DNA from: Pectobacterium atrosepticum
GTDB lineage: Bacteria > Pseudomonadota > Gammaproteobacteria > Enterobacterales > Enterobacteriaceae
Assembly (NCBI GenBank): GCA_019056595.1
Contig: CP036163.1
Location: 4,154,001-4,218,000, forward strand
Direction: 5' to 3'
DNA: 64,000 nt
Shown here: positions 6,638 through 18,176 of the stretch, piece by piece
Layout: each line of letters opens with the position of its first letter
Numbering within the stretch: the stretch's first letter is position 1
Notes under the pieces: generated by a model
What the model was told of the DNA's origin: nothing
The model's input: only the letters and a program-made list of their open reading frames with translations
Databases searched by the model: none
Program-made: the position numbers and the translations under genes

Positions 6638-8287
6638 ATGCGCTTTTCAATAAAAGCTCTGGGATGTGCAATGGCAGTATCGCTGGCGTTAACACCTGTT
6701 ATGTCAATGGCTTGGGAAAAAGACAAAACATACGCCATCACTATTTTGCATACGAATGACCACCACGGTCATTTCTGGCATAACGATCACGGCGAATATG
6801 GTTTGGCTGCGCAAAAAACGTTGGTCGATCAGATTCGTCAGGAAGTGGCGAGTAAAGGTGGCAGCGTATTACTGCTTTCCGGCGGTGATATTAATACCGG
6901 CGTTCCTGAGTCCGATTTGCAGGATGCGGAGCCTGATTTTCGTGGTATGAACATGGTTGGCTATGATGCGATGGCACTCGGCAACCACGAATTCGATAAT
7001 CCACTGTCTGTGCTGCGTCAGCAGGAGAAATGGGCAAAATTCCCACTGTTATCGGCCAATATCTACCAAAAAAGCACCGATCAGCGGTTGTTCAAGCCTT
7101 ATGCCCTGTTCGACAAGCAAGGTGTGAAAATCGCAGTTATCGGCCTGACAACGGATGATACGGCCAAATTAGGCAATCCTGAGTATTTTACCGATATCGA
7201 ATTCCGTAATCCTTCGACGGAAGCGAAGCAGGTTGTTGAGCAGTTGCGTAAGAGCGAAAAGCCAGATGTGATCATTGCTGCGACGCACATGGGGCACTAT
7301 GACGATGGTAATCATGGCTCGAATGCACCGGGTGATGTGGAAATGGCGCGTAGCCTGCCTGCTGGATATCTGGACATGATTGTCGGCGGCCACTCGCAGG
7401 ATCCGGTCTGTATGGCGCAGGAAAATAAAAAGCAGGTGGATTATGTGCCGGGCACGCCTTGTGCTCCCGATCGCCAGAATGGTACCTGGATTGTTCAGGC
7501 GCATGAGTGGGGTAAATATGTGGGTCGTGCTGATTTCACATTCCGTAATGGCGAATTGAAACTTGAGCATTATCAGCTGATTCCGATCAACCTGAAGAAA
7601 AAAGTAGAGAAAGACGGCAAGACCGAACGGGTTTTCTATACGCATGAAATCACGCAGGACTCTGACGTCATGAAAATGCTGACGCCGTTCCAGGAAAAAG
7701 GACAGGCGCAGTTGGGCATCAAGATCGGTAGCGTGAAAGGCAAATTGGAAGGCGATCGCAATCAGGTGCGTTTCCGTCAGACCAATCTGGCACACGTGCT
7801 GCTGTCTGCGCAACTTGAGCGAGCAGAGGCCGATTTCGCCATCATGAGCGGCGGTGGAGTACGTGATTCGATTGAATCGGGTGATATCACTTATAAAGAT
7901 GTACTGAAGGTTCAGCCGTTTGCTAACACGCTGGTTTATGTGAATATGAAAGGCAGCGACGTCGAGAAATACCTAGCCGTAGCCGCTAATAAAAAGGTGG
8001 ATTCTGGTGCCTATGCGCAATTCCTTAACGTTAGCCTAACGGCAGACGGACAGGGCGTGCAGAACGTGAAAATCAAAGGTGAGCCGTTGCAGGCAAATAA
8101 AGTTTACCGCATGGCAACGCTGAACTTTAATGCGATGGGGGGGGATGGTTACCCACGTCTTGATAATTTGCCAGGTTATGTGAACACCGGTTTTGTTGAT
8201 GCTGAAGTGCTGAAGCAATATATCGAGAAGCATTCTCCGCTGGATGCGCAAGCTTATGCACCGAAAGGTGAGATTGTTTATAAATAA
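6638..8287 (+). CDS. ushA: Periplasmic UDP-sugar hydrolase / 5'-nucleotidase UshA
   Basis: UshA hydrolyses UDP-sugars and nucleotides in the periplasm to salvage nucleosides and phosphate. The 549-residue precursor starts with a Sec signal peptide (about residues 1-25, ending SMA). The metallophosphatase domain carries the dimetal motifs ILHTNDHHGHF near 36, GGDINTG near 88, GNHEFD near 116 and GGHSQDP near 250. The C-terminal 5'-nucleotidase substrate domain includes FNAMGGDGYP. ATG follows ACGGAG at 6627-6632. A hairpin terminator follows. Strong match to E. coli UshA (550 residues). Confidence 0.97.
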   Translation: MRFSIKALGCAMAVSLALTPVMSMAWEKDKTYAITILHTNDHHGHFWHNDHGEYGLAAQKTLVDQIRQEVASKGGSVLLLSGGDINTGVPESDLQDAEPDFRGMNMVGYDAMALGNHEFDNPLSVLRQQEKWAKFPLLSANIYQKSTDQRLFKPYALFDKQGVKIAVIGLTTDDTAKLGNPEYFTDIEFRNPSTEAKQVVEQLRKSEKPDVIIAATHMGHYDDGNHGSNAPGDVEMARSLPAGYLDMIVGGHSQDPVCMAQENKKQVDYVPGTPCAPDRQNGTWIVQAHEWGKYVGRADFTFRNGELKLEHYQLIPINLKKKVEKDGKTERVFYTHEITQDSDVMKMLTPFQEKGQAQLGIKIGSVKGKLEGDRNQVRFRQTNLAHVLLSAQLERAEADFAIMSGGGVRDSIESGDITYKDVLKVQPFANTLVYVNMKGSDVEKYLAVAANKKVDSGAYAQFLNVSLTADGQGVQNVKIKGEPLQANKVYRMATLNFNAMGGDGYPRLDNLPGYVNTGFVDAEVLKQYIEKHSPLDAQAYAPKGEIVYK

Positions 8288-8342: not shown

Positions 8343-8517
8343 CTCTGAGATATCTTAAAGAAATAGCGTGGATTTAAGATCTTATTTGCCAAAGTGAAAT
8401 AAATTAATTCATTGGTTTAAATTATAAAAATCCCTTTTTCTTAACGCGCTTTAAAATAATTCCCCCGCAAAATAAATGATACTCCCTGTGCCTTTTATCA
8501 ACGGAGTTATCAAAATA

Positions 8518-10530
8518 ATGAAAAGCGTAAATATTGAAATTAATGTCTGTGATAGTACAGGAAAATCGACGTGTACTGTTCATCCCCCTATTCAGGTCAC
8601 CCCTCATACTTGCTGTCATTCAAATGACGAGGGTGAGGAAGAACCTAATGTTTCGGGTGTTTTCTCCGTATTTGGACGGACTGGTGTTGTCACTGCACAA
8701 TCCGGTGACTATACCGCCGATCAGATTACCGAAACGGCCACCAGAAAATTTGCTACATCGGATGAGAAAGCAGTCTGGAATGCGAAGCAGGCTGCATTAA
8801 TCTCTGGAACAAATATTCGTACGCTCTTTGGCCAATCGTTGTTAGGTAGCGGTGATCTTTCACCAACACCAGCACAAATGGGTGTAGCAGCGGTAGGACA
8901 TACTCATACCACATCGGAAATCACCGACTACACGCAAAAAACGAAACAGCTCATCCATTCCTCATTGGAAGCAGGGGCGGGCATAACGCTGAGTTATAGC
9001 CCTGCGAGTGAGAAAACGGTAATTAGCGCAACGGGCGGAGGCTCTGGCAGCGGCGATTCTGGCTATATTGTCGCCGATCGACAGGGCGCAACGGCAGGGC
9101 AAAATCACGCGTTCAGCATGAGTCCACAAAATAAATTTAATCTCGCGGCGTATGCGCTGAAAGAAGTCGTTGGTGCAGCGAATCAGGTTTATGTGGTTGA
9201 TGATTTCAATGCATCGAGCAAAATTAACTATGAAACAACAAATGATGTTGTTTTTGATGGAAAAATACATCCGAATATTGGCGGAGGTGTTGAGCTTGTT
9301 AAGAACGGTGATTTTTATTCATCGGAGGTGAATTCGGGTAATCGTGCTGTCTCTATTAGTCTACCCAGTGTGTCAATTGTACCCGTAATGACGGCAGACT
9401 CTGATCGCGGTTATATTGCATCGGCATCTTCAATATATTCGCCATCGTATCCTGCATATATCGCATTTGATAGAAATGATTCTAGCCCCAATAACGTGCG
9501 TGACTGCTGGGCCTCAAATCAGAGGCCGACAGACAGTAATCCTCAATGGCTGAGTTTGAAATTCCCTGACCATCAATATATTACTGAGTACGCGATAACA
9601 AACCGTGTATATGCTGGGCTGTCAAATCCAAGGTCATGGGAATTACAAGGGAGTAATAACGATAATGACTGGGCCACTCTGCATGCTGTATCAAACGATG
9701 AAAATAACACATCGGGCGTTATTCGCCGATTTACAGTATCGACTCCGGGGCGATACATGTCGTATCGATTATTGTTCACAGCATCGAATGGCGGCGATAA
9801 TTTTGTTTGCATCAAAGAATTATCGTTGTTCACCGGTTCAAAGATGTTACTTAAAGCGGGTGAGCAATGGTTTACTGTGAGAAATGGAATTCTGTCAAAT
9901 GTTCCTGCTCCAACCAGTGCCAGTGATTTTATTCGTGATGGTTTTATCGCATCAGGAAATATCCAACAATACCCATCCAGTAATATATATTCAGGGGAGG
10001 GAATACATGTTGACGTTCTTTACACACCACAATCCCAGCTATCAATTCAACGCTCTCTGCTCCCTGGTGGATCATGGTCACAAATCAATTCCGCAATCTT
10101 AACAGCTACGCAGACGGGCAGCGGCAAAGTGCGCGTCGCCGTAACGCGAGATCTGATTAACTGGTATGTCTTGCGGAGCGGGGCGTGGGTTGATGTTGGT
10201 GCATTGTCAGCAGATACGGCAGGCGCTACGGTGTTGATTGCTGATGGTATGACGCCAGCCGAGCTTGGTGGGATTACTGCGGCACAGTGGACGCAGTTGT
10301 TCTCATCAAACAATGACGTGCCGGACGCGCTTGCGTTTGCATTCGCACTTGATATCACCGATCCAGCCACAGATGTTGCGACTATTGATCGACTGGTACT
10401 GAACGTCAACGATGCGTCTAGCTGGAAAGTGCAATCCCCTGCGGAAGTGGAAATTCGCTGGCGCACCGACAGTGTGACATTCCGTACCGTGACGGCGGGT
10501 AATTATAAACTGGCGTATCAGGTTCCGTAA
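8518..10530 (+). CDS. Tail-fibre-like protein with discoidin (F5/8 type C) domain, copy 1
   Basis: No gene name is recognised. From the ATG at 8518 (GGAG at 8503-8506) the product has 670 residues; the frame is open from 8476 but no ribosome site serves that start. There is no signal peptide or membrane segment. The N-terminal part has a Cys-Cys motif (HTCCHS, about 33-38), then VFGRTGVVTAQSGDYT and QMGVAAVGHTHTTSEI, motifs common in phage tail-fibre and collar proteins. Residues about 291-439 look like a discoidin fold: IAFDRN, CWASNQ, PQWLSLKF, PRSWELQGSN and a closing ELSLF. The C-terminal 150 residues end in GNYKLAYQVP. A paralogue follows directly. A role in binding surface sugars is inferred from the discoidin part only; how the protein leaves the cell, if it does, is unknown. 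Confidence 0.8.
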   Translation: MKSVNIEINVCDSTGKSTCTVHPPIQVTPHTCCHSNDEGEEEPNVSGVFSVFGRTGVVTAQSGDYTADQITETATRKFATSDEKAVWNAKQAALISGTNIRTLFGQSLLGSGDLSPTPAQMGVAAVGHTHTTSEITDYTQKTKQLIHSSLEAGAGITLSYSPASEKTVISATGGGSGSGDSGYIVADRQGATAGQNHAFSMSPQNKFNLAAYALKEVVGAANQVYVVDDFNASSKINYETTNDVVFDGKIHPNIGGGVELVKNGDFYSSEVNSGNRAVSISLPSVSIVPVMTADSDRGYIASASSIYSPSYPAYIAFDRNDSSPNNVRDCWASNQRPTDSNPQWLSLKFPDHQYITEYAITNRVYAGLSNPRSWELQGSNNDNDWATLHAVSNDENNTSGVIRRFTVSTPGRYMSYRLLFTASNGGDNFVCIKELSLFTGSKMLLKAGEQWFTVRNGILSNVPAPTSASDFIRDGFIASGNIQQYPSSNIYSGEGIHVDVLYTPQSQLSIQRSLLPGGSWSQINSAILTATQTGSGKVRVAVTRDLINWYVLRSGAWVDVGALSADTAGATVLIADGMTPAELGGITAAQWTQLFSSNNDVPDALAFAFALDITDPATDVATIDRLVLNVNDASSWKVQSPAEVEIRWRTDSVTFRTVTAGNYKLAYQVP

Positions 10531-10557
10531 TTCTTCTCCCTACTGCCTATTCCAATG

Positions 10558-10583
10558 GCCGTGTATATCGCGGCTTTTTTTTC
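10558..10583 (+). terminator. Terminator after copy 1
   Basis: GCCG and CGGC arms around a 9-base centre are followed by eight Ts. The short stem is GC-rich and lies right after the stop codon region. Confidence 0.65.
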
Positions 10584-10689
10584 ATCTGTGTTTTATATAA
10601 AAGAATAAATTATTAAAACGCTTTAAAATAATACTCTCTCTAAATAAACGACACTTCTGATGCCTTTTATCAATGGAGCCATCAGTACT

Positions 10690-12720
10690 ATGAAAAACAT
10701 CAATATTGAAATCAATGTTTGTGACAGTACAGGCAAATCAACATTTACCGTTAATCCTCATACTTGCTGTCATTCCGATAACGGAAGTGGGCAAGAACCC
10801 GGTGTTTCTGACGTTTCCTCCGTATTCGGACGGACTGGTGTTGTCACTGCACAATCCGGTGACTATACCGCCGATCAGATTACCGAAACGGCCACCAGAC
10901 AATTTGCTACACCGGATGAGAAAGCAGTCTGGAATGCGAAGCAGGCTGAATTAATCTCTGGAACGAATATCCGCACGCTCTTTGGTCAATCGTTGTTAGG
11001 TAGCGGTGATTTTTCACCAACCCCAGCGCAAATGGGCGTAGCAGCGGTAGGGCATACTCACACCACATCGGAAATCACCGACTACACGCAAAAAACAAAA
11101 CAGCTCATCCATTCCTCACTGGAAGCAGGAGCAGGCGTGACGCTGAGCTATAACGCTGCGAATGAGAAAACGGTAATTAGCTCAACGGGCGGTGGTTCCG
11201 GCAGCAGCAACTCTGGCTACATCGTCGCCGATCGTCAGGGCGCAACGGCAGGGCAAAATCACGCGTTCAGCATGAGTCCACAAAATAAATTTAATCTCGC
11301 GGCGTATGCGCTGAAAGAAGAAGCAGGTGCTGCGAATCAGACTTATGTGGTTGATGATTTTAATGCGTCGAGTGAGCCAAATTACAAAGCGACGAGTGCA
11401 GTTATTTTTGATGGCATGGTCAGTCTTTATACTGGTTCAAATTATCAACTAATGCCAGATGAGGGTTTTTACTCTGCTGAAATAAAATCGGATGGTGAGA
11501 AATTAGATATCGCTGTAATGGCTGATTTTTCTTCGTCCGTTATTCCTTTTATGACATCTAATACATTGCCAGTAGGTTATACAGCGAGCGCATCTAATGA
11601 ATCTCTAGGGATGTATAAAGCTTTTATCGCGTTTGATGGCTCTAACAATTCAGGTCCGCCACCCAACTGTTGGGGAACTGATGGGACATGGGTACCTTCT
11701 ATTGAACGTCCTCACTGGCTACAAATCGATTTACCAGCGGAAGAGGTCATCGGTGGTTATCAAATTACCAACCGTAGCCAACTGGATATGGGGAATGTTC
11801 GAACGTGGAAACTCCAAGGCAGTAATGATAAGAGTGTAACGTGGGATGATTTACATTCCGTTACCGATGACGCAAATAATGAACCTGGTGTGATAAGGAA
11901 TTTTACTCTCTCACAATTCTCTAGTTACAAACGTTACCGTCTGTTAATTACAGCTATTAATGGTAGCAGCCCATATGTCACTATTTCAGAATTAAAATTC
12001 TTTCAACCAAATGGAAAGTTTGTTATCCATACTGGTGGGAAAAACTATGGCTTCTCTGGAAGCGTACTGACTGAAATCACTGGAGAGTTGACCCCAGAAA
12101 AAATAGATCTGTTAGGTGTATCGAAAATCGATTCATTAAATACGACGCTGCCTATTTTTACTACTCCTGTAAAACTGATTTCTGATCGGCAGATTAGTGT
12201 GCGCACAACATATACACCATTAGAGCAATTAGTCATTCAGACGTTATTAACATCAACTGATTCATGGTCACAAATCAATTCAGCAACGCTAACAGCAACG
12301 CAGACTGGCAGCGGCAAAGTGCGCGTCGCCGTAACGCGAGATCTGATTAACTGGCATGTCTTGCGGAGCGGGGCGTGGGTTGATGTTGGTGCGCTGTCAG
12401 CAGATACGGCAGGTGCAACGGCGTTGATTGCTGATGGTATGACGCCAGCCGAGCTTGGTGGGATTACTGCGGCACAGTGGACGCAGTTGTTCTCATCCAA
12501 CAACGGCGTACCAGATGCCCTCGCCTTTGCGTTCGCGCTTGATATCACCGACCCTGCCACAGATGTAGCGACCATTGACCGACTGGTGCTGAACGTCAAC
12601 GATGCGTCTAGCTGGAAAGTGCAATCACCAACGGAAGTGGAAATTCGCTGGCGCACCGACAGTGTGACATTCCGCACTGTGGCAGCGGGCAATTACAAAC
12701 TGGCGTATCAGGCTCCGTAA
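10690..12720 (+). CDS. Tail-fibre-like protein with discoidin (F5/8 type C) domain, copy 2
   Basis: Paralogue of the preceding gene, 676 residues from the ATG at 10690 (GGAG at 10674-10677). It keeps the CCHS motif, the VFGRTGVVTAQSGDYT collar-like stretch, the QMGVAAVGHTHTTSEI motif, a discoidin-like segment (about 290-437, with AFIAFDGSN, HWLQIDLP, RTWKLQGSN and ISELKFF) and the same C-terminal 150 residues. The outer parts are nearly identical to copy 1 at the DNA level, while the middle differs strongly. It has its own leader and terminator. No signal peptide is visible. Function unknown; tail-fibre-type adhesin or receptor-binding protein is the best guess. The pair may be left over from a prophage or domesticated. 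Confidence 0.8.
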   Translation: MKNINIEINVCDSTGKSTFTVNPHTCCHSDNGSGQEPGVSDVSSVFGRTGVVTAQSGDYTADQITETATRQFATPDEKAVWNAKQAELISGTNIRTLFGQSLLGSGDFSPTPAQMGVAAVGHTHTTSEITDYTQKTKQLIHSSLEAGAGVTLSYNAANEKTVISSTGGGSGSSNSGYIVADRQGATAGQNHAFSMSPQNKFNLAAYALKEEAGAANQTYVVDDFNASSEPNYKATSAVIFDGMVSLYTGSNYQLMPDEGFYSAEIKSDGEKLDIAVMADFSSSVIPFMTSNTLPVGYTASASNESLGMYKAFIAFDGSNNSGPPPNCWGTDGTWVPSIERPHWLQIDLPAEEVIGGYQITNRSQLDMGNVRTWKLQGSNDKSVTWDDLHSVTDDANNEPGVIRNFTLSQFSSYKRYRLLITAINGSSPYVTISELKFFQPNGKFVIHTGGKNYGFSGSVLTEITGELTPEKIDLLGVSKIDSLNTTLPIFTTPVKLISDRQISVRTTYTPLEQLVIQTLLTSTDSWSQINSATLTATQTGSGKVRVAVTRDLINWHVLRSGAWVDVGALSADTAGATALIADGMTPAELGGITAAQWTQLFSSNNGVPDALAFAFALDITDPATDVATIDRLVLNVNDASSWKVQSPTEVEIRWRTDSVTFRTVAAGNYKLAYQAP

Positions 12721-12747: not shown

Positions 12748-12776
12748 GCCGCGAATGTCGCGGCCTTTTCTTTTTG
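12748..12776 (+). terminator. Terminator after copy 2
   Basis: Perfect GCCGCG (12748-12753) and CGCGGC (12759-12764) arms with a 5-base loop, followed by a T-rich tract. Confidence 0.8.
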
Positions 12777-13012: not shown

Positions 13013-15166
13013 ATGAAGAGCAATTCCATTCTTAAACACATCCCCTGGATGATTCTTGGAATCATTGGGGCTGCCTGCCTCGGCGTAGTCGCACTACGTC
13101 GCGGTGAGCATGTCAGTGCCTTATGGATTATTGTTGCTTCTGTCGCCGTTTACCTCGTGGCCTATCGATACTACAGCCTGTATATCGCACAAAAAGTCAT
13201 GCAGTTGGATCCGACCAGAGCAACCCCCGCCGTTGTCAATAACGACGGTCTTAACTATGTACCGACGAACCGTAACGTTCTGTTCGGGCACCACTTTGCT
13301 GCTATCGCAGGTGCGGGGCCGCTGGTTGGGCCGGTACTGGCCGCGCAGGTCGGCTACCTGCCGGGCACCTTATGGTTGCTGGGCGGCGTGGTGCTGGCGG
13401 GTGCCGTGCAGGACTTCATGGTGCTGTTTATTTCGACCCGCCGTAACGGTGCGTCGTTAGGCGAAATCGTTAAGAAAGAACTCGGCCCAGTACCGGGTAC
13501 GATTGCGCTGTTCGGCTGCTTCCTTATCATGATCATCATTCTTGCCGTACTGGCGCTGATTGTGGTGAAAGCGCTGGCAGAAAGTCCGTGGGGCGTCTTT
13601 ACCGTTTGTTCTACGGTACCGATCGCGCTCTTTATGGGCGTCTACATGCGCTTTATCCGTCCGGGTAAAGTCGGTGAAATTTCGGTGATGGGGATCGTGC
13701 TGCTGGTGCTGGCGATCTGGTTTGGTGGCGTAGTGGCACATGACCCGTACTGGGGTCCGGCGCTGACCTTCAAAGATACGACCATTACTTATACGCTGAT
13801 TGGCTATGCCTTCGTGTCTGCACTGCTGCCAGTATGGTTGATTCTGGCTCCGCGTGACTATCTGGCGACCTTCCTGAAAATCGGTGTGATCGTCGGTCTG
13901 GCGATTGGTATTGTGATACTTAATCCCGATCTGAAAATGCCAGCGATAACGCAGTTTGTGGATGGCACCGGTCCGGTCTGGAAAGGTACGCTGTTCCCAT
14001 TCCTGTTTATTACTATCGCCTGTGGTGCGGTGTCTGGCTTCCACGCATTGATTGCTTCCGGTACTACGCCGAAATTGATGGCTAACGAAAAAGATGCACG
14101 GTTCATCGGTTACGGTGCAATGTTGATGGAATCTTTCGTGGCGATCATGGCTTTGGTTGCGGCGTCTATCATCGAACCGGGTCTCTACTTTGCGATGAAT
14201 ACCCCGCCAGCGGCGTTGGGTATTACGATGCCGGATCTGCATCGACTGGGCACTGCGGATGCGCCGATGATTTTGGCACAGTTACAAGATGTATCTGCAC
14301 ACGCGGCAGCAACCGTCAGCTCCTGGGGCTTCGTAATTTCTCCTGAGCAGATTATGCAAACGGCGAAAGACATCGGTGAACCTTCCGTTCTTAACCGCGC
14401 AGGTGGTGCACCAACGCTGGCTGTCGGCATTGCACACGTGTTCCACCAGATCATTCCTGGCGCCAATATGGGCTTCTGGTATCACTTCGGTATTCTGTTT
14501 GAAGCGCTGTTTATTCTGACAGCTCTGGATGCGGGTACGCGTGCTGGTCGCTTCATGTTGCAGGATCTGTTGGGTAACTTCGTTCCTTTCCTGAAGAAAA
14601 CGGATTCGCTGATTGCTGGTATGATCGGTACGGCGGGTTGTGTCGGTCTGTGGGGCTACCTGCTGTATCAAGGTGTGGTTGATCCGCTGGGCGGCGTGAA
14701 GAGCCTGTGGCCGCTGTTCGGTATCTCTAACCAGATGCTGGCTGCGGTGGCGCTGGTACTGGGTACCGTCATCCTGATTAAGATGAAACGTACACAGTAC
14801 ATTTGGGTCACATTGGTTCCGGCGGTTTGGCTGCTGATCTGTACCACTTGGGCGCTGGGTCTGAAACTGTTCAGCGACAACCCACAGTTGGAAGGCTTCT
14901 TCTACATGGCGAACATGTTCAAGGGCAAAATTGCAGAAGGCGGTGCCGATCTGAGCGCGCAGCAGATTTCGAACATGAACCATATCGTGACCAACAACTA
15001 TACCAACGCCGGTCTGAGCATTCTGTTCCTGATCGTGGTGTACAGCATCATAGCGTACGGTATTAAAGCGGCATTGGCTGCACGTAAAGTGGCTGAACGT
15101 ACCGATCAGGAAACGCCGTATGTTCCGGTTCCTGAAGGTGGCGTGAAACTCTCTTCTGGTCACTAA
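13013..15166 (+). CDS. btsT: Pyruvate:proton symporter BtsT (CstA family)
   Basis: BtsT is a high-affinity pyruvate uptake protein of the CstA family in the inner membrane. The 717-residue product has the CstA N-terminal domain with GHHFAAIAGAGPLVGPVLAA near residue 92 and about 16 to 18 hydrophobic helices, and it ends in TPYVPVPEGGVKLSS as E. coli BtsT/YjiY does. It matches BtsT (716 residues) much better than CstA (701). It heads the order btsT-yjiX-yjiA, the same as in E. coli. A BtsR-type direct repeat lies upstream, which implies control by the BtsS/BtsR pyruvate-sensing pair. The ATG follows AAGGATG at 13002-13008. Confidence 0.93.
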   Translation: MKSNSILKHIPWMILGIIGAACLGVVALRRGEHVSALWIIVASVAVYLVAYRYYSLYIAQKVMQLDPTRATPAVVNNDGLNYVPTNRNVLFGHHFAAIAGAGPLVGPVLAAQVGYLPGTLWLLGGVVLAGAVQDFMVLFISTRRNGASLGEIVKKELGPVPGTIALFGCFLIMIIILAVLALIVVKALAESPWGVFTVCSTVPIALFMGVYMRFIRPGKVGEISVMGIVLLVLAIWFGGVVAHDPYWGPALTFKDTTITYTLIGYAFVSALLPVWLILAPRDYLATFLKIGVIVGLAIGIVILNPDLKMPAITQFVDGTGPVWKGTLFPFLFITIACGAVSGFHALIASGTTPKLMANEKDARFIGYGAMLMESFVAIMALVAASIIEPGLYFAMNTPPAALGITMPDLHRLGTADAPMILAQLQDVSAHAAATVSSWGFVISPEQIMQTAKDIGEPSVLNRAGGAPTLAVGIAHVFHQIIPGANMGFWYHFGILFEALFILTALDAGTRAGRFMLQDLLGNFVPFLKKTDSLIAGMIGTAGCVGLWGYLLYQGVVDPLGGVKSLWPLFGISNQMLAAVALVLGTVILIKMKRTQYIWVTLVPAVWLLICTTWALGLKLFSDNPQLEGFFYMANMFKGKIAEGGADLSAQQISNMNHIVTNNYTNAGLSILFLIVVYSIIAYGIKAALAARKVAERTDQETPYVPVPEGGVKLSSGH

Positions 15167-15233: not shown

Positions 15234-15274
15234 ATACCCTGTATAATGTATAACGTTATGCAGGGTATTTTTTA
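15234..15274 (+). terminator. Hairpin with T-run between btsT and yjiX
   Basis: ATACCCTG (15234-15241) pairs with CAGGGTAT (15261-15268) and is followed directly by a T-run. The shape fits an intrinsic terminator or attenuator that would lower yjiX-yjiA expression relative to btsT. The 19-base loop is long. Confidence 0.55.
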
Positions 15275-15311
15275 TCTAGCCGCTATTGCAGGCGATGGTC
15301 TGGAGGTAATG

Positions 15312-15515
15312 ATGTTTGGCAATCTGGGAAAAGCAGGAAAATATTTGGGCCAGGCGGCGCGTATGCTGGTCGGTATGCCAGATTATGATACCTATGTGCA
15401 GCATATGCAGACCAATCACCCGGATAAACCTGCGATGACGTACGAAGAATTTTTCCGCGAACGCCAGCAGGCGCGTTACGGCGGAGACGGCAAAGGCGGG
15501 ATGCGCTGCTGTTAA
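15312..15515 (+). CDS. yjiX: YbdD/YjiX family small protein
   Basis: A 67-residue protein of the YbdD/YjiX family, which accompanies CstA-type transporters; its role is not established. The sequence from [18 protein letters not shown] to the end [11 protein letters not shown] lines up with E. coli YjiX over the full length, including the paired C-terminal cysteines. The ATG at 15312 sits behind GGAGG at 15302-15306; the frame is open to 15246 upstream but that part lies in the hairpin region. It sits between btsT and yjiA with a 16-base gap to the latter. Confidence 0.9.
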
Positions 15516-16669: not shown

Positions 16670-16756
16670 GAAAAAATCCCTACCTTATTGTAATTATTAC
16701 GAATACATCTAAAACGTGATCGTCTCTCGCTTTTTAATGGAATGTTGGTGGTATTT

Positions 16757-16777
16757 TATTAAAACGATATTTCATTA
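16757..16777 (+). promoter_or_regulatory. Candidate KdgR box at pehN
   Basis: The arrangement TAAA-N6-TTTCATTA resembles the KdgR operator core GAAA-N6-TTTCA of soft-rot pectinase genes, with G replaced by T in the left arm. It ends 17 bases before the pehN start, a position suited to repression. One arm is imperfect, so this is a candidate. Confidence 0.4.
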
Positions 16778-16793
16778 TTTAGTGAGGTTAAGT

Positions 16794-18176
16794 ATGCGTA
16801 GTGGTCTTGCTCTGTCTTTAATGGCTTCCTGCATCACACTGGGTATTCAAGCTGGTACGGCACAAGCGGCCAGTTCAGTGAAATTCCCAGATAAAACCTG
16901 TGACGTCACACAATACGGGGCCGAAGGTCACCGCCTACAGATCGCACTAAATACCGAGGCTTTCCAGAAAGCGATTGATGATTGCGCTGCGGCTGGTGGC
17001 GGAACGGTACACGTTCCTCGCGGTAACTATCTGGTCGATCCGCTGTTTCTGAAGAGTAACATCCGACTGGATTTGGCAAAAGATGCAACTATCGTCGCGT
17101 CGACCGAAGTCGCGGCGTATCGCGCGACGGAAAAAACCAAGTACGCTGAAGCGGAAAATGGCTGGCTTCCCTTTATCAGTATTGCCGATGCGCAGAACGT
17201 GGCTATCACCGGTCAAGGCACCATTGATGGGCAGGGTGCCGTCTGGTGGGAGCGCTGGCGTGAGAATATTCGCGCAACCGGCAAGAAGGGCGGGACCGAT
17301 CGTCCCCGTCTGATTTATATCAAAAGTTCCAGCAATGTGCTGGTGGACGGTGTCACACTCACGCATTCCCCGAGCTTCCACGTTGTGATGCGTTACTCGC
17401 ATGATGTGGATGTGAACGGTACTCGGATTCTGTCACCGTGGCATGCACCAAACACCGATGCTATCGACCCGATCGACAGCCAGAATATCCGTATTACTAA
17501 CAACTACATCGACTGTAATGACGACCATATCGCGATAAAAGCCGAGAAGCCGGATAGCCGCTTCCCGAATGGTGTCGTGGATAACATCTATATCGCCAAC
17601 AATATCCTGAAGCAGGGGCGCGGCATTTCTATCGGCAGCGAAACTTCCGGCGGTGTGAATAACGTACTGGTTGAAAACAACCAGTTTGAAGGTTCCATGT
17701 ACGGTATTCGCATTAAAACCCTGCGCGGTAAAGGCGGCGAAGTGAAAAACATCACTTACCGTAATACCAAAATGGTGGATGTCGAAATACCGCTGGTCTT
17801 TGCCGCTTACTACAAAGCCGCGCCGATTGTGCAGGCTGAGGTAGACAAGATGCTGGCCGAAGGCGGCTTCACGATGGGTGAGCAGATTTACCCACCGGAT
17901 ACCGACCCAGAGCAGCCATTTGATCAGTACAAGACGCCGCATTTCAGCAATGTCACCATTGAAAATCTGGAATCTACCGGTAAAACCAAGGCCGCCGCGT
18001 ACATTATCGGCGTGCCGGAAGCGCCGCTCAGTGGTTTCCACTTTGATAACGTGCGGATTGATGCGGATAAAGGTATTCGGGTAAGGAATGCGGAACTGCA
18101 AACCAAAGGCCTGACTGTCAATGTGAAGGAAGGCCCGGTAATGCAGTTGGATAAAGGGGCGAAAGTCGATCAGTAA
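16794..18176 (+). CDS. pehN: Secreted polygalacturonase of GH28 family (PehN type)
   Basis: GH28 enzyme that hydrolyses the alpha-1,4-galacturonan backbone of pectin; exo-action is likely but not provable here. From the ATG at 16794 (GTGAGG at 16782-16787) the product has 460 residues with a Sec signal peptide of about 26 residues ending AQA. The frame is open 26 codons upstream, which would spoil the signal peptide. Parallel beta-helix motifs are present: NTD at 220-222, DD at 243-244 and RIK at 306-308. The usual Gly-His-Gly is Gly-Arg-Gly at 275-277, an exception worth noting. A composite repeat lies downstream. The gene is between yjiA and ybaK, a site without pectinase in E. coli. Confidence 0.88.
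   Translation: MRSGLALSLMASCITLGIQAGTAQAASSVKFPDKTCDVTQYGAEGHRLQIALNTEAFQKAIDDCAAAGGGTVHVPRGNYLVDPLFLKSNIRLDLAKDATIVASTEVAAYRATEKTKYAEAENGWLPFISIADAQNVAITGQGTIDGQGAVWWERWRENIRATGKKGGTDRPRLIYIKSSSNVLVDGVTLTHSPSFHVVMRYSHDVDVNGTRILSPWHAPNTDAIDPIDSQNIRITNNYIDCNDDHIAIKAEKPDSRFPNGVVDNIYIANNILKQGRGISIGSETSGGVNNVLVENNQFEGSMYGIRIKTLRGKGGEVKNITYRNTKMVDVEIPLVFAAYYKAAPIVQAEVDKMLAEGGFTMGEQIYPPDTDPEQPFDQYKTPHFSNVTIENLESTGKTKAAAYIIGVPEAPLSGFHFDNVRIDADKGIRVRNAELQTKGLTVNVKEGPVMQLDKGAKVDQ

What the first reader, a model, noticed from the sequence alone, without database searches (positions are those of the whole stretch)
8518..12720. Tandem tail-fibre/discoidin proteins without a phage
Two proteins of 670 and 676 residues combine phage tail-fibre/collar motifs (VFGRTGVVTAQSGDYT, GVAAVGHTHTTSEI) with a discoidin-like domain and a Cys-Cys N-terminal motif. 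No capsid, tail, lysis or integrase gene is nearby; the neighbours are ushA and btsT. There is no signal peptide. They may be orphan receptor-binding proteins supplied to a tailocin or prophage elsewhere, or effectors released by lysis or a secretion system. This is the best candidate here for an undescribed system.
Basis: partly seen in the sequence, partly recalled or inferred. Interest (0 to 1): 0.8.

Follow-up and report, generated by a model that had tools for sequence, protein, structure and literature searches.

The report
Domesticated phage-fibre lectin gene array
Soft-rot bacteria of the genus Pectobacterium mostly keep, at one fixed spot in the chromosome, one to four copies of a gene related to a virus tail fibre, each with a different sugar-binding-type middle part, apparently for their own use rather than for a virus.

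Summary
Window 8518-10530 and 10690-12720 encode 670- and 676-aa proteins: phage-fibre scaffold, F5/8C (CBM32) domain, Cys-Cys leader, no hydrophobic signal. They belong to a Pectobacterium family: in 20 of 25 genus genomes 1-4 intact genes (41 in all) lie between ushA and the btsT-like gene. The body is the distal part of a temperate-phage tail fibre (ZF40 gp65, 56% identity), but the ~205 N-terminal residues of the phage protein are replaced by a 44-52-residue cysteine leader found in no phage searched. The ends are 87-90% conserved; the middle is hypervariable (mean 39% identity, 14 types at 70%) and in part exchanged between species. All parts show purifying selection. Each gene carries, 77-78 nt upstream, the element published as PhoP operator of P. 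versatile OA04_12400, by gene order this locus, about twofold PhoP-activated (PMC7843439). The window's genome has no P2-type tail tube, so spare tailocin fibres are unlikely here, although 19 of the 20 array genomes do have such a tube. Best reading: a domesticated, diversified glycan-binding fibre system of the bacterium. Export route and ligand are unknown.

The parts
8441..8459 (+). Upstream element of gene A, matching (reverse complement, 2 mismatches) the published PhoP operator of P. versatile OA04_12400; 77 nt before the ATG
   Evidence: best match at 77-78 nt before the ATG in 44 of 44 genes examined (41 array, 3 class 2), 0-5 mismatches; operator from PMC7843439 Table 2
8518..10530 (+). 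Gene A: 670-aa phage-fibre/CBM32 protein
8518..8667 (+). Gene A, cysteine leader (residues 1-50; Cys 11, 19, 32, 33)
   Evidence: outside Pectobacterium only weak matches (best E 0.005) in 392 family genomes; in viral contigs only in array genes abutting one prophage; no leader match in phage records
8668..9237 (+). Gene A, conserved fibre scaffold (residues 51-240, VFGRTG...GHTHTTSEI...)
   Evidence: Mean pairwise identity 0.87 over 41 members; aligned in ZF40 gp65
9238..10086 (+). Gene A, hypervariable middle (about residues 241-523); F5/8C (CBM32) domain at residues 301-429 (9418-9804)
10087..10527 (+). Gene A, conserved C-terminal domain (about residues 524-670)
   Evidence: Mean pairwise identity 0.90 over 41 members; relatives in 14 viral-contig loci, one of them the array beside the L042 prophage
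10557..10585 (+). Terminator-like hairpin and T tract after gene A
10613..10631 (+). Upstream element of gene B (2 mismatches), 77 nt before the ATG
10690..12720 (+). Gene B: 676-aa paralogue with a different middle type; leader residues 1-44 (10690-10821; only three Cys: 11, 26, 27), F5/8C residues 299-435 (11584-11994), conserved C-terminus from about residue 530
12748..12774 (+). Terminator-like hairpin and T-rich tail after gene B
6638..8287 (+). ushA, left boundary of the intact arrays in 20 of 25 genus genomes (in G010 with a phage insert in between)
13013..15166 (+). btsT/cstA-like symporter gene, right boundary of the intact arrays in 20 of 25 genus genomes (in G016 with one further gene in between)
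16716..18176 (+). GH28 polygalacturonase (pehN-like), the landmark that ties this locus to P. versatile OA04_12400...OA04_12450
   Evidence: gene order in PMC7843439 Table 2

Best explanation
The two genes are members of a chromosomal family of domesticated phage tail-fibre proteins, best described as glycan-binding fibre lectins of the bacterium. SHOWN: the body (scaffold, CBM32-containing middle, C-terminal domain) is homologous to the distal part of tail fibres of ZF40-type phages; the N-terminal stretch of the phage protein is replaced by a cysteine leader; each gene has its own conserved upstream element, and in the window each is followed by a terminator-like hairpin; the middle comes in 14 types (at 70% identity), and about half of the same-type cross-species pairs show recent exchange, while the scaffold is somewhat more alike within genomes; all parts are under purifying selection. 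PUBLISHED: by gene order one member is about twofold activated by PhoP in P. versatile. INFERRED: the proteins form trimers like other fibres; the leader, not a phage baseplate, decides where they go (docking, metal-bound or disulphide-linked cap, or a non-Sec export tag); they act outside the producing cell, binding plant-wall, self or competitor polysaccharide, and a genome keeps several copies to cover several glycans. I hold 'domesticated fibre array, not a part of a phage or tailocin particle' at about 0.6, and the specific role 'extracellular glycan binding/adhesion for the bacterium itself' at about 0.35.
For: Relative in phage ZF40, gp65, over residues 41-670, in the tail region near genes annotated baseplate and tail-fibre. 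41 intact genes of 662-685 aa in 20 of 25 genus genomes, all between ushA and btsT. dN/dS (ratio of means, same-type pairs, 63-68 pairs after dropping dS under 0.05) 0.123 leader, 0.101 scaffold, 0.145 middle, 0.080 C-terminus. Middle identity uncorrelated with scaffold identity (r 0.10), lower within genomes (0.345) than between (0.394), while scaffold (0.898/0.867) and C-terminus (0.923/0.902) are higher within. Middle dS below ushA dS in 29 of 55 same-type cross-species pairs, e.g. 0.109 against 0.501. No genome carries two intact copies of one middle type (0 of 32 pairs; shuffles mean 2.70, P 0.048). Conserved element at -77/-78 in 44 of 44 genes, 40 with at most 3 mismatches; best match in 929 background stretches 5 or more mismatches. 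Own genome without P2-type tail tube. CBM32 fold in the model; many of the best PDB hits are carbohydrate-binding modules.
Against: No export route is known and no extracellular localisation is shown. The leader's role is a guess; its model confidence is about 30 pLDDT or less; the window's gene B and one other member have only three leader cysteines. PhoP dependence is weak (2.02-fold) and the operator score modest (7.8) in the paper; 8 of 929 background stretches also reach 5 mismatches, like the weakest gene. Three of 25 species lack the array and a fourth keeps only a remnant, so it is dispensable. 19 of 20 array genomes have a P2-type tail tube, so a link with tailocins is not excluded statistically. 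The site is also a phage landing place (L042, G010), so continuing exchange with phages cannot be excluded. In 26 of 55 pairs the middle is not younger than ushA. The one-type-per-genome test is borderline: P 0.03-0.06 depending on the cut-off. Class 2 has the same leader but branches outside array + ZF40-like phages, so the leader's history is not simple (array + class 2 as one clade: AU p 0.073).
Confidence: 0.6

Rival explanations
1. Spare receptor-binding proteins: the array is a store of fibres that ride on carotovoricin, on a ZF40-type or other prophage, or recombine into its fibre gene, widening what the particle can bind.
For: Body shared with ZF40-type fibres. 19 of 20 array genomes have a P2-type tail tube. 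The ushA side is a phage landing place: viral contig L042 ends in lysis genes and dinI and joins the array 314 bp before gene 1; G010 has a phage fibre, a Tfa and a DinI-like ORF there, with a repeat of about 136 bp on both sides. G016 has a 712-aa protein with GDSL-lipase domain and a start that looks phage-spike-like (recalled) between array and btsT. Carotovoricin fibre loci also recombine genus-wide (PMC13195805).
Against: Phage N-terminal stretch replaced by a leader seen in no phage record or viral contig except array genes beside one prophage. No Tfa-like gene beside the array in the window. Own genome lacks P2-type tail tubes but keeps two intact genes; G006 and G013 have tubes but no array. 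The array is one group in both trees, apart from the phage bodies; DNA identity of array genes to the four ZF40-type fibre genes compared is at most about 80% over stretches of 150 bases or more, so no recent transfer among those compared.
Confidence: 0.2
2. Receptor-masking or decoy proteins against phages: released fibres occupy the producer's own surface glycans (or kin's) and block adsorption of phages with the same binding domains.
For: Binding domain of phage type, hypervariable and partly exchanged between species; purifying selection. PhoP controls the cell envelope in P. versatile (PMC7843439 Table 1).
Against: No export signal seen; no match in PADLOC; the middles of the phage rows compared are at most about 62% identical to array types; no defence gene among the flanking genes scanned.
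Confidence: 0.1
3. Part of pectin use: intracellular or exported polygalacturonate-binding proteins of the PhoP pectin subsystem, as the table heading in PMC7843439 suggests.
For: Listed under polygalacturonic acid utilisation with about twofold PhoP activation; pehN-like gene downstream after btsT, yjiX and yjiA.
Against: The authors themselves write that the two larger CBM32 proteins have no signal peptide and very weak identity to YeCBM32, suggesting a different function. Fourteen divergent middle types argue against one fixed ligand.
Confidence: 0.1
4. Prophage debris: leftovers of an old phage at a preferred landing site, without function.
For: Phage landing place at the ushA side; broken copies in G016 (1) and G020 (all), remnant in G008; G003 keeps what looks, by eye, like the 5' untranslated stretch of a lost first gene.
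Against: 41 intact genes in 20 species, dN/dS about 0.1, element conserved at fixed distance, published expression. G020's hemH is split too, so its breaks may be assembly errors.
Confidence: 0.03

Closest known systems
Pectobacterium phage ZF40 gp65 (AFC22517.1; PHROG phrog_16348) and the matching fibres of ZF40-type prophages
   Same: Scaffold, CBM32-containing middle and C-terminal domain align over residues 41-670 at 56% identity; phrog_16348 E 2.7e-229
   Different: Phage protein has ~205 N-terminal residues and sits in the tail module; the chromosomal ones have the Cys leader, are mostly tandem and stand among bacterial genes
P. versatile OA04_12400 and OA04_32560 (PMC7843439; CBM32, about twofold PhoP-activated)
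   Same: By gene order and upstream element OA04_12400 is this locus, and OA04_32560 (next to OA04_32550, a choloylglycine hydrolase gene) is the class 2 locus
   Different: In the parts I read (sections 13 part 1 and 15) the paper notes CBM32, size and no signal peptide only; no phage origin, tandem array, leader or domain exchange. The OA04 genes themselves were not fetched here
Carotovoricin tail-fibre locus (PMC13195805)
   Same: Phage-type binding proteins of Pectobacterium with conserved and variable parts that recombine across the genus
   Different: Part of a tailocin cluster between tolC_2 and ybiB with the tail genes and in part an invertase; a text search of the main text found no mention of ushA, btsT, discoidin or ZF40
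Erwinia jumbo phage RisingSun gp193/gp195
   Same: gp193 aligns over residues 45-670 at 38% identity; two copies around a small tail-fibre gene
   Different: Phage genome, long N-termini without the leader
Orphan relatives in genus g98 of the same family (unnamed; G121, G231, G304, G365)
   Same: Residues 126-670 align at 39-46% identity, among bacterial genes, in three loci the same neighbourhood with moeA/moeB-like genes (gene names recalled)
   Different: Other N-terminus (MWYK.GSLSLFSGS...), at five of six loci a small gene upstream that resembles a tail-completion protein (one tested, sub-threshold Pfam match), no Cys leader; one relative lies in a viral contig (L134)

Membership tests
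Phage tail-fibre (receptor-binding) proteins, ZF40 gp65 type | Homologous distal body | tested here: met
   94% of the query covered, 55.6% identity, bits 643; phrog_16348
Phage tail-fibre (receptor-binding) proteins, ZF40 gp65 type | N-terminal stretch as in the virion protein | tested here: not met
   ZF40 gp65 has about 205 residues before VSGVSSVFGRTG, here 44-52 of unrelated sequence; 0 of 13 viral-contig relatives read (three of them ZF40, L043 and L044 again) has the leader
Phage tail-fibre (receptor-binding) proteins, ZF40 gp65 type | Lies in a phage or tailocin tail module | tested here: not met
   Between ushA and btsT in 20 of 25 genomes
Phage tail-fibre (receptor-binding) proteins, ZF40 gp65 type | Trimeric fibre | tested here: inconclusive
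   Ends have pLDDT about 30 in the monomer model and mean 37 in the separate C-terminal model; no multimer tool
CBM32 / F5/8 type C domain proteins | F5/8C sequence profile and fold | tested here: met
   Above Pfam cut-off; Foldseek probability 1.00 to CBM32 chains
CBM32 / F5/8 type C domain proteins | Binds a carbohydrate | not testable with these tools
   -
Carotovoricin fibre proteins | In the tailocin cluster of the same genome | tested here: not met
   0 P2-type tail tubes in G000; the one sheath gene is in what reads as a Mu-like prophage
Sec/Tat-exported lectins | N-terminal signal peptide | tested here: not met
   No strongly hydrophobic stretch in residues 1-70 of 41 members (crude hydropathy test only)
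PhoP regulon of P. versatile | Published operator sequence upstream | tested here: met
   Best match at -77/-78 in 44 of 44 genes, 0-5 mismatches, 0 in 11
PhoP regulon of P. versatile | PhoP-dependent expression in this strain | not testable with these tools
   Only the published P. versatile RNA-seq (PMC7843439)
Known anti-phage defence systems | Match in PADLOC | tested here: not met
   0 families for either protein at E up to 1

The most novel reading that the evidence does not exclude
Pectobacterium runs a bacterial 'binding-protein repertoire': phage-derived fibre genes with a new cysteine leader that serves as its own export or assembly tag, individually promoted by a PhoP-type element, with the binding domain exchanged across the genus so that each strain carries a personal set of glycan specificities. 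The same element sits before a cysteine-tailed mini-protein plus a [2Fe-2S] ferredoxin gene, which could be partners in a joint redox- or metal-linked machinery.
Probability: 0.25. Interest if true: 0.8.

Novelty: new variant of a known kind. Interest (0 to 1): 0.6.

Why it matters
Phage tail parts are known to be domesticated as whole particles (tailocins, injection systems; established knowledge, recalled). Here only the binding tip seems to have been kept, stripped of its phage end, given a new leader and turned into a genus-wide array with exchangeable binding domains. If the proteins act outside the cell, they offer ready-made, naturally varied probes of Pectobacterium-relevant glycans, and make testable whether bacteria use phage binding domains for their own adhesion or for blocking phages. 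The leader marks a possible unrecognised route for non-Sec proteins.

Tried and rejected
Tailocin supply: searched the own genome for tail sheath and the 25 genus genomes for tail tube, and read the own sheath region. G000 has an array without tube, G006 and G013 tubes without array, G003 neither; the other genomes have tubes, 19 of 20 array genomes among them, so this argues against need, not against any link. Leader as a wider targeting tag: 36 of 392 family genomes matched at E up to 0.1, four of them Pectobacterium (E 1e-31 or better); the other 32 have E 0.005 or weaker, many with stop codons; phage and viral collections gave only the array genes next to the L042 prophage. Plasmid origin: one discoidin hit in Paenibacillus, 23% identity. 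Defence system: PADLOC empty. Leader fold and C-terminal fold: AlphaFold confidence too low to use. Sigma-70 consensus scan gave fewer hits than shuffles, 4 against a mean of 10.2, so I do not name a -35/-10. A strict pattern for the element hit only 20 of 44 genes; the 19-nt comparison replaced it. NCBIfam has no model for the proteins. Paper searches for orphan tail fiber (0 papers), ushA + tail fiber, secretome + tail fiber, discoidin + tail fiber and any three of domesticated, receptor-binding protein, tail fiber, CBM32: from titles and abstract beginnings nothing described this array; only the listings of these were seen.

Dropped before counts: the broken copy of G016 and all copies of G020 were left out of the 41-member analyses (G020's stretch was not put in; G016's pieces were skipped). 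G010's ushA was cut by the fetched stretch, so 14 of 69 same-type pairs drop out of the ushA comparison, leaving 55; G015's btsT is incomplete. In dN/dS, pairs with dS up to 0.05 were dropped (63-68 of 69 kept). In the second tree the array was thinned to 19 of 41 and four phage rows (three duplicates, one over-long) were left out. Of 14 non-fibre sites of the element, 12 were examined.

Full report
WHAT IS THERE. Two adjacent genes, 8518-10530 and 10690-12720, encode proteins of 670 and 676 aa that are 67% identical. Pfam finds an F5/8 type C domain in each above its cut-off. The AlphaFold monomer model of the first protein is confident only at about residues 235-507; that part matches CBM32 and other discoidin folds in the PDB (Foldseek probability 1.00). 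The ends have pLDDT about 30, which says nothing for or against a trimer; a separate C-terminal model also failed (mean pLDDT 37). There is no strongly hydrophobic N-terminal stretch (crude test). Flanking genes hemH, ybaL, ushA, a CstA/BtsT-type symporter, a yjiA-type GTPase and a GH28 polygalacturonase were checked against NCBIfam or Pfam; yjiX, yjiA and btsT are recalled names.

PHAGE RELATIVES. In 50,697 phage records 7 match: Pectobacterium phage ZF40 (2 records, 56% identity over residues 41-670), Erwinia jumbo phages RisingSun/Joad (3 records, 38%), and a short discoidin match in 2 more. In ZF40 the gene (gp65) lies after the baseplate genes and before two genes annotated as tail fibre. 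gp65 has about 205 residues before the shared VSGVSSVFGRTG; the chromosomal proteins have 44-52 unrelated residues up to the same motif. A search of viral contigs with the C-terminal domain gave 14 loci: one is the array beside the L042 prophage, three are ZF40, L043 and L044 again, ten are new. Of the 13 read, eight start like ZF40 and five in other ways; none has the leader. So the body is the distal module of a phage fibre, and its phage end is missing here.

A GENUS-WIDE ARRAY. Of 25 genomes searched, 22 have a match. In 20 (the window's genome and 19 others) intact genes lie between ushA and btsT: seven genomes with one, eight with two, two with three, three with four, 41 in all, 662-685 aa. 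G016 has one further, broken copy. G020's copies, at the same place, are all broken, but its hemH is split too, so assembly errors are possible. G008 keeps a 52-residue C-terminal remnant before btsT. G003 and G013 have ushA next to btsT without the genes, G006 is rearranged. In G003 a stretch resembling the 5' untranslated region of a first gene remains, by eye, which suggests loss. Spacing between genes is 159-179 bp, apart from the G016 pair that encloses the broken copy. Three genomes also have a single 'class 2' gene with the same leader at another site; in G009 it stands beside a choloylglycine-hydrolase-family gene by Pfam, in G015 beside a like ORF, in G007 beside a shorter ORF.

THE LEADER. 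All 41 members have NIEINVC and a Cys-Cys pair. Residues 1-45 hold four cysteines in 29 members, five in 10 and three in 2; of the window's proteins gene A has four, gene B three. Its function is unknown.

HOW IT EVOLVES. Mean pairwise identity over the 41 proteins is 0.87 for the scaffold, 0.90 for the C-terminus and 0.39 for the middle; the middle falls into 14 types at 70% identity (13-16 at other cut-offs). Scaffold and middle identities are uncorrelated (r 0.10). Within genomes the scaffold is somewhat more alike and the middle less alike than between genomes (0.898/0.345 against 0.867/0.394). No genome has the same middle type twice among intact genes: 0 of 32 pairs, shuffled mean 2.70, P 0.048; with other cut-offs P 0.03-0.06, so suggestive only. 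Same-type pairs show dN/dS (ratio of means) of 0.123, 0.101, 0.145 and 0.080 for leader, scaffold, middle and C-terminus. Across species the middle's dS is below that of ushA in 29 of 55 same-type pairs, e.g. G004_1/G022_1 0.109 against 0.501, with scaffold dS 0.687. In the other 26 pairs it is not. This is exchange of the binding domain between conserved flanks in part of the pairs, comparable to the exchange of whole fibre loci in carotovoricin (PMC13195805; I read the abstract, part 1 of Results and section 9).

ORIGIN. In trees of the conserved parts the array is one group (99/96 with 41 rows; 99/92 with 19 rows) next to the ZF40-type phages (joint support 100/98 and 98/99), which form a group of their own (94/88) but are unresolved. 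Class 2 falls outside both, although it has the same leader. Holding array and class 2 together is not rejected (AU p 0.073). Either the leader is old and ZF40-type phages took the body from a bacterium, or the leader moved between two domesticated bodies; I cannot tell. The ushA side is a phage landing place: viral contig L042 carries a phage lysozyme gene and a dinI-like gene and joins the array 314 bp before its first gene, and G010 has a phage fibre with Phage_fiber_2 and Collar domains, a fibre-assembly protein and a DinI-like ORF there, with a repeat of about 136 bp on both sides. An old prophage at this place is a plausible source (inference).

REGULATION. PMC7843439 (sections 13 part 1 and 15 read) lists OA04_12400 and OA04_32560 of P. 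versatile as 'Coagulation factor 5/8 type domain protein', 2.02- and 2.04-fold higher in wild type than in the phoP mutant, with predicted operators. OA04_12450 is pehN, and a GH28 gene follows the array, btsT, yjiX and yjiA here and in P. versatile KC01; so OA04_12400 is this locus by gene order. The reverse complement of its operator has its best match 77-78 nt before the ATG in 44 of 44 genes examined, exactly in 11, with up to 3 mismatches in 40, at most 5; of 929 random 150-nt stretches of the window 8 reach 5 mismatches and none fewer. The authors write that the two proteins are larger, lack a signal peptide and have very weak identity to YeCBM32, suggesting a different function. In 25 genomes a longer form of the element has 58 matches at up to 3 mismatches, against 5 for the reversed control; of the 32 with at most one mismatch, 26 lie in the arrays and 6 before a ferredoxin unit (for positions, for the ferredoxin). 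Of 14 non-fibre sites I examined 12: 11 have the ferredoxin gene and 10 the cysteine-tailed mini-protein; in G000 no such site was found. The core is nearly palindromic (TAAAGCGCTTTA), so another regulator than PhoP is possible.

WHAT IT DOES. The tailocin reading is weakened on several counts: phage end missing, leader not found in phages, no chaperone gene beside it, no P2-type tail tube in this genome, and tail tubes without arrays in G006 and G013; but 19 of 20 array genomes do have a tube. The debris reading fails on dN/dS. What remains is a bacterial use of a phage binding tip. I commit to extracellular glycan binding (adhesion or coating), with the leader deciding location; this step is inference. 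Masking of phage receptors and pectin binding are the nearest rivals.

NOVELTY. Members are in print as uncharacterised PhoP-activated CBM32 genes, and the protein family exists as phrog_16348. I found no description of the array, leader or domain exchange in the searches; of their papers I opened only PMC7843439, PMC13195805 and PMC3391216 (passages), the others I know from the listings; the library lacks most subscription papers. I rate it a new variant of a known kind (domesticated phage parts).

Noticed in passing
L139/L154 (G005:C1:2342701), L150/L169 (G022:C1:438796), L153, L161, L181, L182, L183, L184: The array's upstream element also precedes a roughly 50-aa protein with a cysteine-rich tail (...PGCNREKCFC..) followed by a [2Fe-2S] ferredoxin gene (Pfam Fer2); ferredoxin at 11 and mini-protein at 10 of 12 non-fibre sites examined, of 14 found. 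Possibly a joint regulon.
   Followed up: partly
L139 808-1080 (minus), L150 833-1018 (minus): Beside the ferredoxin unit lies a small ORF that in L139 has a QVVSGTNY motif and looks like a cystatin (motif recalled; no Pfam match at E 0.01).
   Followed up: no
L110-L115 (genus g98 of the same family): Orphan fibre-like genes with the same C-terminal body but another N-terminus, at five of six loci preceded by a small gene resembling a tail-completion protein, among ordinary chromosomal genes; in three loci the same moeA-side neighbourhood (names recalled).
   Followed up: partly
L042 (viral contig IMGVR_UViG_3300044475_000296), L051 600-5650 (G010): A prophage, or its remnant, inserted between ushA and the array; G010's insert has a direct repeat of about 136 bp of the ushA downstream region on both sides, which looks like an attachment site.
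   Followed up: partly
L056 12149-14287 (G016): A 712-aa GDSL-lipase protein with a phage tail-spike-like start (recalled) lies between the array and btsT, i.e. perhaps a second orphan phage binding protein at the same locus.
   Followed up: no
L118-L119 (G000:C2:2586000-2624900): What reads as a Mu-like prophage in the window's own genome, with the only tail sheath gene found there, a 401-aa fibre-like protein and a 213-aa protein resembling a fibre-assembly protein (roles by resemblance).
   Followed up: no
window 15246-15512: The yjiX-type gene matches NCBIfam 'KCU-star family selenoprotein' below its cut-off (61.2 against 85 bits).
   Followed up: no
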